Shown in pieces: positions 2,546 through 8,727 of a stretch of DNA of 64,000 nt. The translations under genes were made by a program, and so were the position numbers. Where the stretch lies: positions 4,790,501 to 4,854,500 of the forward strand of contig NZ_CP116304.1 of assembly GCF_028010285.1 (NCBI RefSeq), written 5' to 3'. The notes under the pieces were generated by a model that was not told the origin of the DNA, ran no database searches, and worked only from the letters and a program-made list of their open reading frames with translations. This DNA comes from Pseudomonas sp. Q1-7. Lineage in GTDB: Bacteria; Pseudomonadota; Gammaproteobacteria; Pseudomonadales; Pseudomonadaceae. Position 1 is the stretch's first letter; each line of letters opens with the position of its first letter.

Positions 2546-4215
2546 CTACACCTGCTGACGGATACGAACGCGTTGTTCAATCTGTTGGTAGATCTGGACT
2601 CCCGCACGGTGGGCAATTTCAACCACCACAGCAAAACGTTGCTGGGCTATGTAGTCTGCCCAGCCTGACTCACATCGAACGACCAGATAGTACGTGTTGC
2701 CATACTGAGCCAGTTCTCCACGTTTGAAGGTCACGCTCGCTGTTTGTACTGTTCCCTTTTCTCGCAGTGTGGATCCTGGTTGAAGATCGCAGTTCTTGCT
2801 GGAGGCTAGCTTGGGGGCTTTGCCTTCTGCTTTTGCTCTCCATCGAAATTGCTCAACGACTTCATCTGGCGTCACGCCTCGCAGTACCCTGAAGCTCATA
2901 TGCACACCGGCGTAATCAACACGTGTATGGCGCACGGGCGGATCGTAAGCCAAGGTGACGGTCAGCGTTCTCTCACCTGCCTGCGTCAGGTAGCGCTCAG
3001 GGATCGGGATCTCGTATACGGCAAAGTTGTCCAGCGGCAGGGCATCTTCAGCGTATAGGACGACCCTAGAGTCGTCGGAGTAGGTGGCCCTCTCTATCCC
3101 AATGTACCCATTGCCGCAGATATGTCGTTTGGAGTCTGCATCCAGATGGATCAGCCGTTGCCGAGCTTCCTCGGGAATTTCAGCCGCACCTACCAACAAT
3201 GCCCTGAGCAGATTGGCTGAGGCGCGGGGAAAGCGTGCCAGCAGCTGCGCGGCCTTGTGTGCAGCCATAGGGGTGGAATAAGAGGTTCCGGATGCTGAGC
3301 GCAGCATTTGCTCCAAGAAGAGATGGTTGAGCGTTAACACTCCTGCGCTGGGCAGGTCATAGCCCCATCGCAAGCCGTTAAGACGGTCATAGACCATTGT
3401 GCCGCCGAGATCCACGATATCGGGCTTTATCGCACCTCCGATCCCGGGACCTGCCCGAGAGAAAGGGGACGGCTCAAATGGGCCGGTAATAGGCCGCACA
3501 CCGACATCTTGGTCGATGAGCTCTGCGTCGATCCCCGCGCCGTGGGCAATGGAGCCGACTGTCAGCACGTTGAGCGCTGCGGAGGGCTCTAGAAAGCGAT
3601 TGCTGGGCTCCAGGAGGTAAGCTGGGTAATCAGTGATACCTTCCTCTTGTCGTTCCGCTTGCCTTGGATGACGGTTGCCTGCGGAAACCAGAATGAGCGC
3701 ATTGAGCTCACTAGCCAATTCATCAAGAGTGGCAGTCCAAGGGCCTACCTTTCCGCCAGCGTACGGAGCGCTTCTCGTATCAGCCAATGAAATACTGAAA
3801 ATACGGCAGCCAAATTCACGATTCAACGTAGTCAATGCTTCCCGCATCTGACTGGGAACGAGACGGTGATCATCGAAACGCCCCTCATCATTCACCACGC
3901 GCGCTGAGCAAATCCTCGCCGCACAGACAAGATGGTCGCTGGTTGCGAGCTGTGCACGAAGGTCACCAAAAGCAGCAACTCCGGCGACCCTGGTTCCGTG
4001 GCCCCATACATCAGCCGCGCCCAGCTCAGCCGGTACTCCAATGGCGCCGACAATAGCCCCCTCCAGTAGAGGGTGATCATTTATACCGCTGTCGATAATG
4101 CCAATGATGGGGGCATTATCGGGCAGCATCACGGGGGGGAGGTCGGGTAGGGTAAGCTCCAGCGCTTCTCGGGTGAACGTGTCAGGCTGAGGCGGCAGAT
4201 CGATGGTGGCAATCA
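2546..4215 (-). pseudogene. ietS: ietS, 3' part: catalytic half of subtilisin-like (S8) protease, separated from its 5' part by IS insertion
   Basis: C-terminal 555 residues of a subtilisin-fold protease. All three catalytic positions are visible (numbering from GTG 4216): Asp42 in IIGIIDSGIND, His73 in WGHGTRVAG, Ser312 in SASGTSYSTPMAA; the oxyanion Asn181 is in VSAGN. Joining this part to 7030-7711, after removing the insertion at 4219-7029 and one copy of the CAT duplication, gives one in-frame 783-residue protein reading LLSIDV-IATIDL. The IetS assignment comes from the S8 domain with a long N-terminal extension and a neighbouring AAA ATPase. The IetAS pair is known first from Agrobacterium plasmid maintenance and later as an anti-phage system. 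A GTG at 4214-4216 could in principle start a truncated protease, but no ribosome binding site supports this. Confidence 0.78.
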
Positions 4216-4226
4216 CATTGTAGTGG

Positions 4227-5072
4227 TCAACCCATTCCGGACAGTGGGTTAAGTTTTTCTTCGGCCACCGCAGGTGGCAGTCCGTCGTTGAACTGATGCG
4301 GCCTGATCCAGTTGTAACGGTGCATCAGGTAATGACTGATGTCCCGTTGAGCTTCCTGGGCGGTCAGGTATCCGGTCGTTGGTACCCATTCCGACTTCAG
4401 GCTTCGGAACAGGCGCTCCATCGGCGAGTTGTCCCAGCAATTACCCCGACGGCTCATGCTCTGCTGCATCCGGTAACGCCACAGCCGCTGGCGGAACAGG
4501 CGGCTGGCGTACTGGCTGCCCTGATCCGAATGGAACATTACCTGTTGTGGCTTGCCGCGTTGCTCGTAAGCCATGTCCAGGGCCTTGATTACCAACTCGG
4601 CATCCGGTTTGGCCGAGAACGCCCAGCCAACTACCCGACGGGTATGTAGATCCAGCACTGCGGCCAGGTAATGCCAGCGACCTTGCGCCCAGACATAGGT
4701 GATGTCGCCACACCAGACCTGATTGGGAGTTTCGGTCGTGAACTCGCGATTCAGCCGATTCGGAATATCTGGTCGTTCAACAGTGGCTTGCTTGTAGGCG
4801 TGCGAGCCCGGCTGCTTGCTGACCAGGCCCAGTTCACGCATTAGCCGGCGTACACGAAAACGGCCAATCGTCTCGCCACTCTCGCGCAGCATGCCCAAGA
4901 TGCTCCGGCTTCCGGCCGAGCCTCGACTCTGACTGAACAACTGATTGACCTGGCTGCGTAGCGCCACGCGGCGAGCATCGATACGGCGACATCGAAGACG
5001 ATGGGCGTAGTAGCAAGAGCGCGCCACATCGAAGGCTGAACAGACCACCTCTACCGGCTCCTGCTCACTCAA
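4227..5072 (-). CDS. IS3-family transposase OrfB (DDE integrase core)
   Basis: Catalytic part of the IS3-family transposase, 281 residues from the TTG at 5072; the frame is open slightly further upstream and would normally be read as a frameshift fusion with OrfA. The N-terminal HTH_21 region (RSRRILGMLR-like, GRFRVRRLMRELGLV) precedes the rve core. The DDE residues sit in VWCGDITYVW, LAAVLDLHTRRVVGW and WDNSPMERLFRSLKSEW. The C-terminal HRYNWIRPHQFNDGLPP is typical. OrfA is cut by the nested element, so the fusion transposase cannot be made. Confidence 0.9.
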   Translation of the reverse strand: MSEQEPVEVVCSAFDVARSCYYAHRLRCRRIDARRVALRSQVNQLFSQSRGSAGSRSILGMLRESGETIGRFRVRRLMRELGLVSKQPGSHAYKQATVERPDIPNRLNREFTTETPNQVWCGDITYVWAQGRWHYLAAVLDLHTRRVVGWAFSAKPDAELVIKALDMAYEQRGKPQQVMFHSDQGSQYASRLFRQRLWRYRMQQSMSRRGNCWDNSPMERLFRSLKSEWVPTTGYLTAQEAQRDISHYLMHRYNWIRPHQFNDGLPPAVAEEKLNPLSGMG

Positions 5073-5080
5073 CTGGTCTA

Positions 5081-6964: not shown

Positions 6965-7029
6965 CAGACACCTCTTTCACGGCGAGGATTTTCGCCTAAA
7001 TCGGTGTCCGGGATCAGTAGACCACTACA

Positions 7030-7711
7030 CATCGATGGATAGCAGTTGAGCGAGGACGCCACCCAGTACCTCAATCCGTAGAAGCGAGATGGCGGGGCCG
7101 TTGTATCGGTCGTATACCGTACCGCCCTGGTCCTCTATGAATCGAGTTAACTCTTCTAGTTTCGTGAGGCGAACTTGGGTCGAGCCTATGTTCCAGAGCT
7201 CCAGGTCCAGGAGCATCAGCGCGTCTGGAACTATGTCATCGAGGTCAACAAAGCCCTCCTCGCGAAGACGTATCCCGATCCGGTCACGCGGCTCTATTGC
7301 ACCGATTGACTCAATGCCGGAAATGAACTGGGAAAATGGTGCGTTTTTCTGCCGCTCCGGAATCTCACCGCCGTACGCTTCAAGCTGGGCGCGAAAATGG
7401 GTGAGGTCACCATTGGAGGAAAAAAGAATGAGTGTCTTGTCCGGATCGCTGGATAGCAGCTCTAGGCCTGCGCCGTGCCAGCTCTCCTCCAAGAGGGCAT
7501 CAGTCATCCTGACTCGTAGGATTAGCGAGGGGTCCACAATCCCCGGACGTTTGCGGGCTGCCTGCTGCTCAACAGCTTGAGCCAATTCATCGTTGAGCCT
7601 GCCGCTATGATCACCTCGATCACGCATAACAGGCTTGCCAAAGCCCGGTTTTTTGCGTCGTGGCAGTTCTTGTGGAATGCGAATTAATCGAAGGTGATCA
7701 TAACGGGCCAT
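7030..7711 (-). pseudogene. ietS: ietS, 5' part: N-terminal region of the subtilisin-like protease
   Basis: First 228 codons of the broken protease gene; the frame stops at 7025 just inside the IS3 element. The segment starts MARYDHLRLIRIPQELPRRKK and has no protease active-site residue. It is probably the N-terminal domain that precedes the S8 domain in IetS-type proteins. The start lies 26 bp after the ietA stop, so the two genes form an operon, ATPase first. The last complete codon before the break (GTG) is shared with the 3' part at 4215. Because the frame is exactly restored in silico, the insertion may be recent. Confidence 0.75.
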
Positions 7712-7737
7712 CCTGACCTCTTTGCTAGTTGGCTAGT

Positions 7738-8727
7738 TCAAAGCTTTGCGCGTCCAGCTCTCCTACGGCTCTCGTCTGCCATTGCTGCTTTAAAGTCGGA
7801 CTCCGTGATCCGTTTGCGGCGGGCAACCAAAGGGGCCTTGATCGTTTGGGTGCAGACACGTTCGATTTCCGCAAAAGAATAGCCTTCCAAGCGACTGATG
7901 TATTTGGACAGGTCGAAATCGATAATGACGTTTTTGAATTTGGTGCCCAAGAAGCGTCTGATGAGCGCTGGATCTGGTTTATCGAACCAGATGACCTCGT
8001 CGAAGCGCCTCCAGATTGCAGCATCCAGAGAGTTGTCGAGGTTAGTGGCGGCGATCATGAAACCACGCGGTTGCATCCGGTCGATGAACAGCAGAAGGCT
8101 GTTCACGACGCGGCGAAGCTCGTTGTGCTCTGCCGAGTCGTCACGCGATCGGGCCAGGGCATCGAATTCATCGAGGAAGAGGACACAGGGTTGCCGTTTA
8201 GCGAACTCAAAAATCTTGCGTACATTTCCAGCGGTTTCGCCCAGATAGGATGAAATCAGGCGATCGAGCTTCACGACAAACAGCGGCAGACCCAGCTCTG
8301 CGGCAAACACTTCGGCGCAGAGGGTTTTTCCGCACCCGGGGGGGCCGCAAAACAGCAGTTTGGATCGGACAGAAAGTCCATGCCGGCGAATTTCTTCCGA
8401 GCGCCTGTACTCCTGAAGCAGACCCGTAAAGACCCGAACATTGGCATGTGAGAGCGTTATGTCTTTATGCGAATGGAGGGGTTCGACCTTCTCGACAAAG
8501 TCGTCGGCGGCATCGGGGAAGGGGATGAGCGAAGCCAGCTTTTGGGGCTGCTTGCTAGAGTTCACACTCGCGGACGTTGCATTATCCAGCGTATGACGGA
8601 GAGACCTGGCAAGGACTCGGTTATTTTTCTGCTCTTCTTCGAGAATTATCTGCTCGGCAACAGCTCGGAACTCTTCGTCTCGGCCGTAGCTTGCCAACAG
8701 CTTTTTCATTAGTTCGCCACGTGCCAT
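7738..8727 (-). CDS. ietA: AAA+ ATPase, IetA-type
   Basis: Single-domain AAA+ ATPase of 329 residues. Walker A is GPPGCGKT at 128-135 and Walker B is VLFLDEFDA at 182-190. Sensor 1 is in FMIAATNLDNSLD and an arginine finger pair in AAIWRRFDEV. The C-terminal lid has GYSFAEIERVC. The N-terminal 90 residues are helical and of unknown role. In IetAS systems this protein partners with a subtilisin-like protease; the pair can act as an addiction-like module and in phage defence. Here the protease gene directly downstream is disrupted, so the ATPase is an orphan. The start at 8727 gives the complete family domain. Confidence 0.85.
   Translation of the reverse strand: MARGELMKKLLASYGRDEEFRAVAEQIILEEEQKNNRVLARSLRHTLDNATSASVNSSKQPQKLASLIPFPDAADDFVEKVEPLHSHKDITLSHANVRVFTGLLQEYRRSEEIRRHGLSVRSKLLFCGPPGCGKTLCAEVFAAELGLPLFVVKLDRLISSYLGETAGNVRKIFEFAKRQPCVLFLDEFDALARSRDDSAEHNELRRVVNSLLLFIDRMQPRGFMIAATNLDNSLDAAIWRRFDEVIWFDKPDPALIRRFLGTKFKNVIIDFDLSKYISRLEGYSFAEIERVCTQTIKAPLVARRKRITESDFKAAMADESRRRAGRAKL

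What the first reader, a model, noticed from the sequence alone, without database searches (positions are those of the whole stretch)
2546..8727. IetAS-type ATPase/protease operon silenced by a nested IS whose removal restores the frame exactly
An AAA ATPase (Walker A GPPGCGKT) lies directly upstream of a subtilisin-like protease gene cut by an IS3 element with a CAT target duplication. In silico removal of 4219-7029 and one CAT rejoins the frame as LLSIDV-IATIDL, giving 783 residues with Asp, His and Ser intact. No further damage is visible, so the loss may be recent and a functional allele should exist nearby.
Basis: partly seen in the sequence, partly recalled or inferred. Interest (0 to 1): 0.75.

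Follow-up and report, generated by a model that had tools for sequence, protein, structure and literature searches.

The report
Jumping gene nested inside jumping gene
A bacterial defence gene is cut by a jumping gene that itself carries a second jumping gene, and relatives of that second one are often found at the same functional spot inside their hosts.

Summary
An IetAS-type operon (ATPase IetA 7738-8727, S8 protease IetS) has its protease gene split by a 2,811-bp insert at 4219-7029 flanked by CAT/CAT. The two pieces, searched apart, lie end to end behind IetA in 13 of 14 relatives, 42-61% identical. No close intact allele was found. IetAS itself is known.

The real interest is the insert: an IS222-like IS3 element carrying an IS110 element (5127-6701) in the AAAAAAG frameshift heptamer between orfA and orfB. 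Of 35 related IS110 copies examined, 20 lie between IS3 orfA and orfB, 11 keep one of them, 2 are inverted between them, 2 lie elsewhere (partly a biased sample). A before/after pair exists on two Bradyrhizobium plasmids. The IS110 leader is predicted to fold like bridge/seek RNAs, with loops resembling target and donor. ISEc21, a known IS110, targets IS3 at another site. Verdict: ordinary IetAS; new variant of IS110 targeting.

The parts
1322..2521 (+). tyrosine integrase next to the operon
   Evidence: Pfam Phage_integrase E 5.7e-21
2546..4216 (-). IetS C-terminal piece with the complete S8 protease domain
   Evidence: PADLOC IetS E 6.3e-106; Peptidase_S8; motifs
4216..4218 (.). CAT target duplication, one copy
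   Evidence: sequence
4219..7029 (-). compound insert: IS3 (IS222-like) occupied by IS110; five copies in the genome
4219..4243 (.). IS3 terminal inverted repeat
4227..5072 (-). IS3 orfB (DDE integrase core)
   Evidence: Pfam rve E 8.1e-30; NCBIfam transpos_IS3
5127..6701 (-). IS110 element including one copy of the AA core (5127-5128); the other AA is at 6702-6703
   Evidence: alignment to uninterrupted IS222, 2-bp overlap
5130..6479 (-). IS110 transposase, 449 aa; its TAG stop lies one base before the AA core
   Evidence: Pfam DEDD_Tnp_IS110 and Transposase_20; NCBIfam IS110 family RNA-guided transposase, 242 bits, cut-off 140
6480..6701 (-). IS110 upstream non-coding region, candidate bridge/seek RNA
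   Evidence: alignment A1, consensus fold and pair counts
6616..6624 (-). candidate right-target guide (GCTTTTTGG)
   Evidence: internal loop of the consensus fold; differs in L152/L160, whose target differs
6593..6600 (-). candidate left-target guide (CAAAAAAC)
6532..6538 (-). candidate donor guide (TTAGGAA), same letters as the IS110 right end plus core
6647..6964 (-). IS3 orfA; its last codons come from IS110
   Evidence: Pfam HTH_Tnp_1 E 5.3e-23; boundary
7005..7029 (.). IS3 terminal inverted repeat
7030..7032 (.). CAT target duplication, second copy
   Evidence: sequence
7027..7711 (-). IetS N-terminal piece
   Evidence: PADLOC IetS E 1.4e-16, profile 1-214
7738..8727 (-). IetA AAA ATPase, intact
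   Evidence: PADLOC IetA E 2.8e-86; Pfam AAA E 2.4e-35

Best explanation
A known kind of IetAS operon (AAA ATPase plus S8 protease; antitoxin plus toxin in a characterised relative) beside an integrase gene lost its protease gene to an IS3-family transposition with a 3-bp duplication. That IS3 element carries an IS110 element of a clade that inserts at the run of A that forms the IS3 frameshift heptamer (YTAAAAAAG), between orfA and orfB. Insertion leaves OrfA and OrfB as separate frames and removes the frameshift by which IS3 elements make the OrfAB transposase. The IS110 probably finds the site with a leader-encoded bridge/seek RNA: one internal loop carries a segment like the left target plus core (YAAAAAAC) and one roughly complementary to the right target; a second loop carries the letters of the element's own right end (TTAGGAA). 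Shown by sequence: the interruption, both IS identities, the position of the inner element, its recurrence in unrelated IS3 hosts, one natural before/after pair, conserved predicted helices. Inferred: RNA guidance, loss of OrfAB, loss of IetS function. Open: whether the compound moved as a unit to five sites or the IS110 filled five existing IS3 copies.
For: IetAS. Insert structure and duplication. Exact position from uninterrupted IS222: 2-bp overlap AA inside AAAAAAG. Five copies with duplications CAT, TTT, CGC, AAG and one (L043) with none. Recurrence: of 35 copies about 55% identical or more, 20 have same-strand orfA upstream and orfB downstream, 11 have one of them, 2 lie inverted between orfA and orfB of another IS3 type, 2 have neither; four more distant IS110s: 0 of 4 (L151 placed). 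Host switching: in this genome the IS110 of L045 is 86% identical in DNA while its host's OrfB is 41% identical; on pBs1S1a nearly the same IS110 (99.8-100%) sits in an IS3 65% identical to the first over 386 bases. Before/after pair: pBs162S2a plain, pBs1S1a occupied, IS3 and about 300 bases of flank on each side 100% identical. RNA: 99.3% of cells paired, 23 double-change cells against a shuffled mean of 7.6. Natural retargeting: L152 and L160 have the junctions CTAAAAAA/AATCGT and their guide reads ACGATT, the complement of AATCGT. Order of the two target segments as reported for IS110-type seekRNA.
Against: Not every copy is in IS3: L082 (92% identical protein) lies outside IS3 beside CTAAAAAA; L085 has only an opposite-strand orfA-like match 543 bases away. 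In the two surveys by IS110 protein alone (at most four candidates scored per genome), leaving out the own genome, 3 of 6 genomes had it in an IS3 element, one of these (G948, L160) judged by junction sequence only. The commonest guides (GCTTTTTGG, GCTTATTGG) are imperfect complements of AAGGC; only L092 of the loci printed pairs GCCTT with AAGGC. L094 has the same changed guide as L152 but a different right junction. One pair-count measure goes the other way: further pair types 8, shuffled mean 9.5. No Rfam family matches. All functional steps are inferred from sequence.
Confidence: 0.85

Rival explanations
1. The compound transposes as one unit: IS3 ends act on DNA that includes the IS110, with OrfAB supplied from a copy from which the IS110 has excised, or from a plain copy since lost.
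For: Five copies of which no two differ by more than three changes, four with their own 3-bp duplications, no plain copy left but a 99-bp remnant. The whole compound with IS3 ends is on two plasmids at 75%, one (L048) with a 5-bp duplication, the other (L047) with none clear, and on a viral contig (L089) with a 3-bp one. IS110 elements excise without a scar (PMC11208160, passages).
Against: No copy found in the genome can now make OrfAB from an uninterrupted gene of this type; filling of existing copies gives the same end state; the before/after pair shows insertion into a resident IS3.
Confidence: 0.45
2. A plain IS3 spread first and the IS110 then occupied every copy by site-specific insertion.
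For: The before/after pair and the same IS110 in two different IS3 elements of one plasmid; no unoccupied exact ATHYTAAAAAAGGC is left in this genome; plain IS3 of this type is common in the family: 25 of 30 fetched loci uninterrupted at the junction.
Against: Needs five separate insertions with full occupancy, although occupancy is low elsewhere (2 of 30 fetched loci with this IS110, the own one included).
Confidence: 0.5
3. The nesting is an accident without site preference.
For: Nested IS elements are common (general knowledge); two close relatives are outside IS3.
Against: The same base position recurs in IS3 hosts with OrfB as low as 35-41% identical.
Confidence: 0.03
4. IetS is not lost: the 556-aa piece with the whole S8 domain is expressed from the IS and stays active, perhaps no longer held by IetA.
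For: Open frame with intact motif strings, co-directional with the IS genes.
Against: The N-terminal 227 residues align in all 14 relatives (30-53% identical); an unrestrained toxin would be selected against (inference).
Confidence: 0.1

Closest known systems
ISEc21, IS110 family (Siddiquee et al. 2024, PMC11187229; passages and one section read)
   Same: IS110-type element with upstream NCR and seekRNA; its target lies in a conserved stretch of IS3-family transposase genes; the bottom-strand match lies 5' of the top-strand match
   Different: ISEc21 targets the codons around the second D of DDE; this clade targets the AAAAAAG frameshift heptamer between orfA and orfB. Its transposase is 358 aa, here 449 aa
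IS621 bridge RNA system (Durrant et al. 2024, PMC11208160; passages read)
   Same: leader RNA with two internal loops, target loop and donor loop, two-base core
   Different: IS621 targets REP sequences with a CT core; here poly-A in IS3 with an AA core. No RNA was measured here
IS4321/IS5075 in Tn21-family ends (recalled; the title seen only in a reference list)
   Same: IS1111/IS110-superfamily elements that settle in another mobile element
   Different: target is a transposon end, not a frameshift signal
IetAS / SgiAT (PMC5006074 passages; PMC11878078 passages)
   Same: AAA ATPase followed by subtilisin-like protease on mobile DNA
   Different: the protease gene is interrupted here

Membership tests
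IetAS | AAA ATPase matching IetA | tested here: met
   PADLOC IetA E 2.8e-86; NCBIfam IteA 251.3 bits, below its cut-off of 510
IetAS | adjacent S8 protease matching IetS | tested here: met
   two pieces match profile 1-214 and 220-784 of PDLC02198; NCBIfam IteS 86.6 bits, below its cut-off of 900, C piece only
IetAS | phage protection or toxin-antitoxin activity | not testable with these tools
   none; gene interrupted
IS3 family | orfA and orfB, TG..CA inverted ends, 3-5 bp duplication | tested here: met
   plain relative IS222 89-92% identical. One of five copies (L043) lacks a duplication
IS110 family | DEDD and Transposase_20 domains, no target duplication beyond a short core | tested here: met
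IS110 with bridge/seek RNA | upstream NCR with conserved folded loops matching target and donor | tested here: met
   by sequence only, right-target match imperfect in most
IS110 with bridge/seek RNA | RNA bound by transposase and directing insertion | not testable with these tools
   none
ISEc21-like target choice | target at the second D of the IS3 DDE motif | tested here: not met
   insertion lies in the AAAAAAG heptamer upstream of orfB

The most novel reading that the evidence does not exclude
A clade of RNA-guided IS110 elements uses the IS3 frameshift signal, a sequence that IS3 cannot easily lose, as its home, and acts as a reversible switch: inserted, it leaves OrfA and OrfB but no OrfAB; excised without scar, it gives OrfAB back and IS3 carries the remaining compounds to new sites. 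A second, only distantly related element of the IS110 superfamily has hit on the same heptamer.
Probability: 0.3. Interest if true: 0.72.

Novelty: new variant of a known kind. Interest (0 to 1): 0.52.

Why it matters
It gives RNA-guided IS110 elements an ecological target: a functionally constrained signal inside another abundant transposon, so target and guide can stay almost constant while hosts change. It would make control of one transposon by another directly testable, and it supplies a natural before/after pair and a natural change of guide and target together. For the IetAS operon itself the lesson is modest: the protease (probable toxin) half is broken and the ATPase (probable antitoxin) half is intact.

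Tried and rejected
Rejected: that the nesting is a one-off. Rejected: that all compounds descend from one occupation of one IS3; the IS3 of this genome is 92-94% identical to a plain copy (L107) and 80% or less over the right half to the other occupied IS3 elements compared (L126, L047, L048, L089), so occupation arose more than once.

Led nowhere: viral contigs for IetS (no relative by tblastn); Rfam on 1-14000 (none at gathering score); tRNA genes in the window (none); counting changes among the five copies to choose between unit movement and filling (too few: L040 and L042 share one in IS110, L042 has one in orfA, L044 one deletion). The TAG at the end of the IS110 gene is in frame with orfB in 11 of 12 compounds printed (L100 differs), but this follows from the fixed insertion point and is not used as evidence. 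In one search the automatic left-target column picked a wrong A-run in four loci (L048, L083, L089, L092); their left junctions were taken.

Literature searches for IS110 in the IS3 frameshift site: over open-licence PubMed Central only, titles and abstract starts of the rows listed; none of these rows named it. ISfinder and TnPedia could not be searched.
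Full report
Observation. Reading the minus strand, 8727-7738 encodes a 329-aa AAA ATPase and the next gene is a subtilisin-like protease in two pieces, 7711-7027 and 4216-2546. PADLOC calls the ATPase IetA (E 2.8e-86) and both pieces IetS; the pieces match consecutive parts of one profile, 1-214 and 220-784 of 795. Pfam finds AAA and Peptidase_S8. NCBIfam's own models (spelled IteA, IteS) match below their cut-offs, so this is a diverged member.

Collinearity without rejoining. I kept the pieces apart. Of 15 loci found with the C piece I used 14 (L022-L035) and left out L036, a 23% match. 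tblastn places the end of the N piece and the start of the C piece at most two residues apart in 13 (overlapping by one in L023 and L032), and collinear with about 25 unaligned residues in L030. IetA precedes them in all 14; it is matched only in part in L033, and L030 and L033 show frame breaks. Identity of the C piece is 42-61%. The genus search found two further IetS at 36% among 18 genomes.

What IetAS does. In PMC5006074 (passages) SgiAT of Salmonella Genomic Island 1 is a toxin-antitoxin pair, the subtilisin-like protein being the toxin and the ATPase the antitoxin, compared there with IetS and IetA of pTiC58. PMC11878078 (passages) lists IetAS among anti-phage systems with unknown mechanism. 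Here an integrase gene lies next door (1322-2521), which would suit a maintenance module of an integrated element (inference). The broken half is the probable toxin; that is the viable direction of damage (inference).

The insert. 4219-7029 has 25-bp inverted ends and CAT on both sides. It holds IS3 orfA and orfB, and between them a 449-aa IS110 transposase. The 2,811-bp whole occurs five times in the genome (one copy is 2,810 bp); no two copies differ by more than three changes. Flanking triplets are CAT/CAT, TTT/TTT, CGC/CGC and AAG/AAG; the fifth (L043) shows none. Of this IS3 only a 99-bp remnant (91% identical) was found besides (40 of 108 DNA candidates scored). By protein, with all candidates scored, the next OrfB is 41% identical and the next OrfA 40%; those two belong to one other IS3 element, at 769,468-772,146, which also has an IS110 (86% identical DNA) between its orfA and orfB.

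Position of the inner element. Against uninterrupted IS222 (L105) the two halves overlap by two bases, AA, inside AAAAAAGGC. That run is the -1 frameshift heptamer by which IS3 elements make OrfAB (established for the family; the abstract start for ISSau2, PMC5771124, in the listing says for that element that OrfAB is made by -1 frameshifting). The IS110 stop codon lies one base before the AA core at its right end.

Census. Forty loci rows were examined: 36 rows, or 35 copies because L137 and L138 are halves of one, at about 55% identity or more, and four at 52% or less. Of the 35: 20 have same-strand orfA upstream and orfB downstream (the five own copies included); 11 have one of the two (L090, L091, L093, L099, L101, L138, L148, L150, L151, L153, L156), the other being lost, rearranged, cut off or pushed away; in L090 and L091, which are nearly alike, orfA is only a weak fragment, and L151 is placed by its DNA match; 2 (L094, L152) lie inverted between orfA and orfB of a different IS3 type; L082 has neither and L085 only an opposite-strand orfA-like match 543 bases away. 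None of the four distant ones is in IS3. Bias: L045, L047 and L048/L139 came from DNA queries that contained the compound, L136 from an IS3 query, L156-L158 from queries with a whole compound. The 13 loci L092-L104 are the least biased group: I took them from the 60 rows shown of 242 plasmid records found by IS110 protein. Of these 13, 6 have both neighbours, 3 one, 1 is inverted and 3 (at 50% or less) have none. In the two surveys of genomes by IS110 protein (390 and 398 genomes, overlapping, at most four candidates scored per genome) six genomes other than the own one had matches at E<=1e-120: G091 and G869 nested, G948 inverted in the other IS3 type (judged by junction sequence), G056, G257 (52%) and G413 (fragment) not in IS3. 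The clade is rare there.

Hosts differ, guest recurs. In the family survey with the IS3 right half (398 genomes, 224 with a match) 30 loci were fetched: 25 uninterrupted at the junction, the own compound, one further compound (L126), one with a different insertion (L125), and two fragments without the junction. The own IS3 is 92-94% identical to a plain copy (L107) but 80% to the right half of L126. Hence occupation is recurrent. On pBs1S1a of Bradyrhizobium septentrionale 1S1 the IS110 sits in an IS3 whose plain form is at the same place on pBs162S2a of strain 162S2, with IS3 and about 300 bases of flank on each side 100% identical; nearly the same IS110 (99.8% in L149, 100% over 1,168 bases in L153) is also in another IS3 type (65% over 386 bases) of pBs1S1a.

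Candidate guide RNA. Sixteen leader sequences align with invariant blocks. The consensus fold has a helix with compensatory changes enclosing an internal loop whose two sides hold GCYTWT and YAAAAAAC, and a second hairpin beside TTAGGAA, the letters of the element's right end. For 17 named pairs 99.3% of cells pair, against 93.0% shuffled; 23 cells have changes on both sides against 7.6; 5 pairs have such a change against 2.6 (12 of 500 shuffles reach it); further pair types are 8 against 9.5, which does not speak for the structure. The structure was derived from the same alignment, so these numbers lean towards it. In L152 and L160, whose junctions read CTAAAAAA and AATCGT, the first side reads ACGATT, the complement of AATCGT; L094 has the same guide but a different right junction. 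The others mostly read GCTT, an imperfect complement of AAGGC; L092 reads GCCTT, an exact one. The change in L152/L160 is probably one evolutionary event. The arrangement agrees with published rules: the left guide pairs with the bottom strand and the right guide with the top strand (PMC11208160, passages), and in IS110-type seekRNA the top-strand match lies 3' of the bottom-strand match (PMC11187229, passages).

Known and new. Siddiquee et al. [quoted passage not shown] So IS110 in IS3 is known as a kind. The frameshift heptamer as a target, for a clade seen here in alpha- and gammaproteobacteria and in one betaproteobacterium (L101, orfA side only), was not named in the rows listed. A second element, in L125, has a 341-aa transposase of the same superfamily, hardly alignable to this one, on the opposite strand, with 13-bp inverted arms, in the same heptamer.

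How it most likely works. Circle and leader RNA are made from the joined ends, the RNA brings transposase to YTAAAAAA in an IS3 gene, and insertion splits orfA from orfB. OrfA and OrfB stay open, OrfAB is lost. Since IS110 elements excise without scar (PMC11208160, passages), the state may be reversible. All of this paragraph is inference from sequence and from the published relatives. Whether the five copies came from movement as a unit or from filling of plain copies cannot be settled with one genome per species.

Noticed in passing
window 9054-9596 and 9601-10763: An AbiTii-like gene (Pfam E 1.2e-23, PADLOC E 6.2e-27) ends where another IS3 element begins; five places in the genome encode OrfB of about this type (32-33% to the compound's OrfB). 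A second defence-like gene next to IetAS may thus also be cut.
   Followed up: partly
L125:149-1494: A different IS110-superfamily element (341 aa, opposite strand, 13-bp inverted arms) sits in the same IS3 frameshift heptamer.
   Followed up: partly
L148 and L151 (plasmid pAV1812-2): Two further copies keep the IS3 left half plus IS110 but are followed by other DNA at the IS110 right end, as if recombined there.
   Followed up: no
L082:1497-3069: An IS110 copy (85% DNA, 92% protein identity) lies outside IS3, beside CTAAAAAA, with a different right flank.
   Followed up: no
L094, L152, L160: Relatives inserted on the opposite strand of another IS3 type beside CTCCTTCTAAAAAA, with a changed guide segment.
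   Followed up: partly
window 26894-51932: MFS transporter, DUF1302 protein and two SBP_bac_5 solute-binding proteins, looking like a catabolic and uptake region.
   Followed up: no
window 13776-15965: 729-aa membrane-like protein without Pfam match not far from the integrase; possibly a conjugation gene of an integrated element (guess).
   Followed up: no
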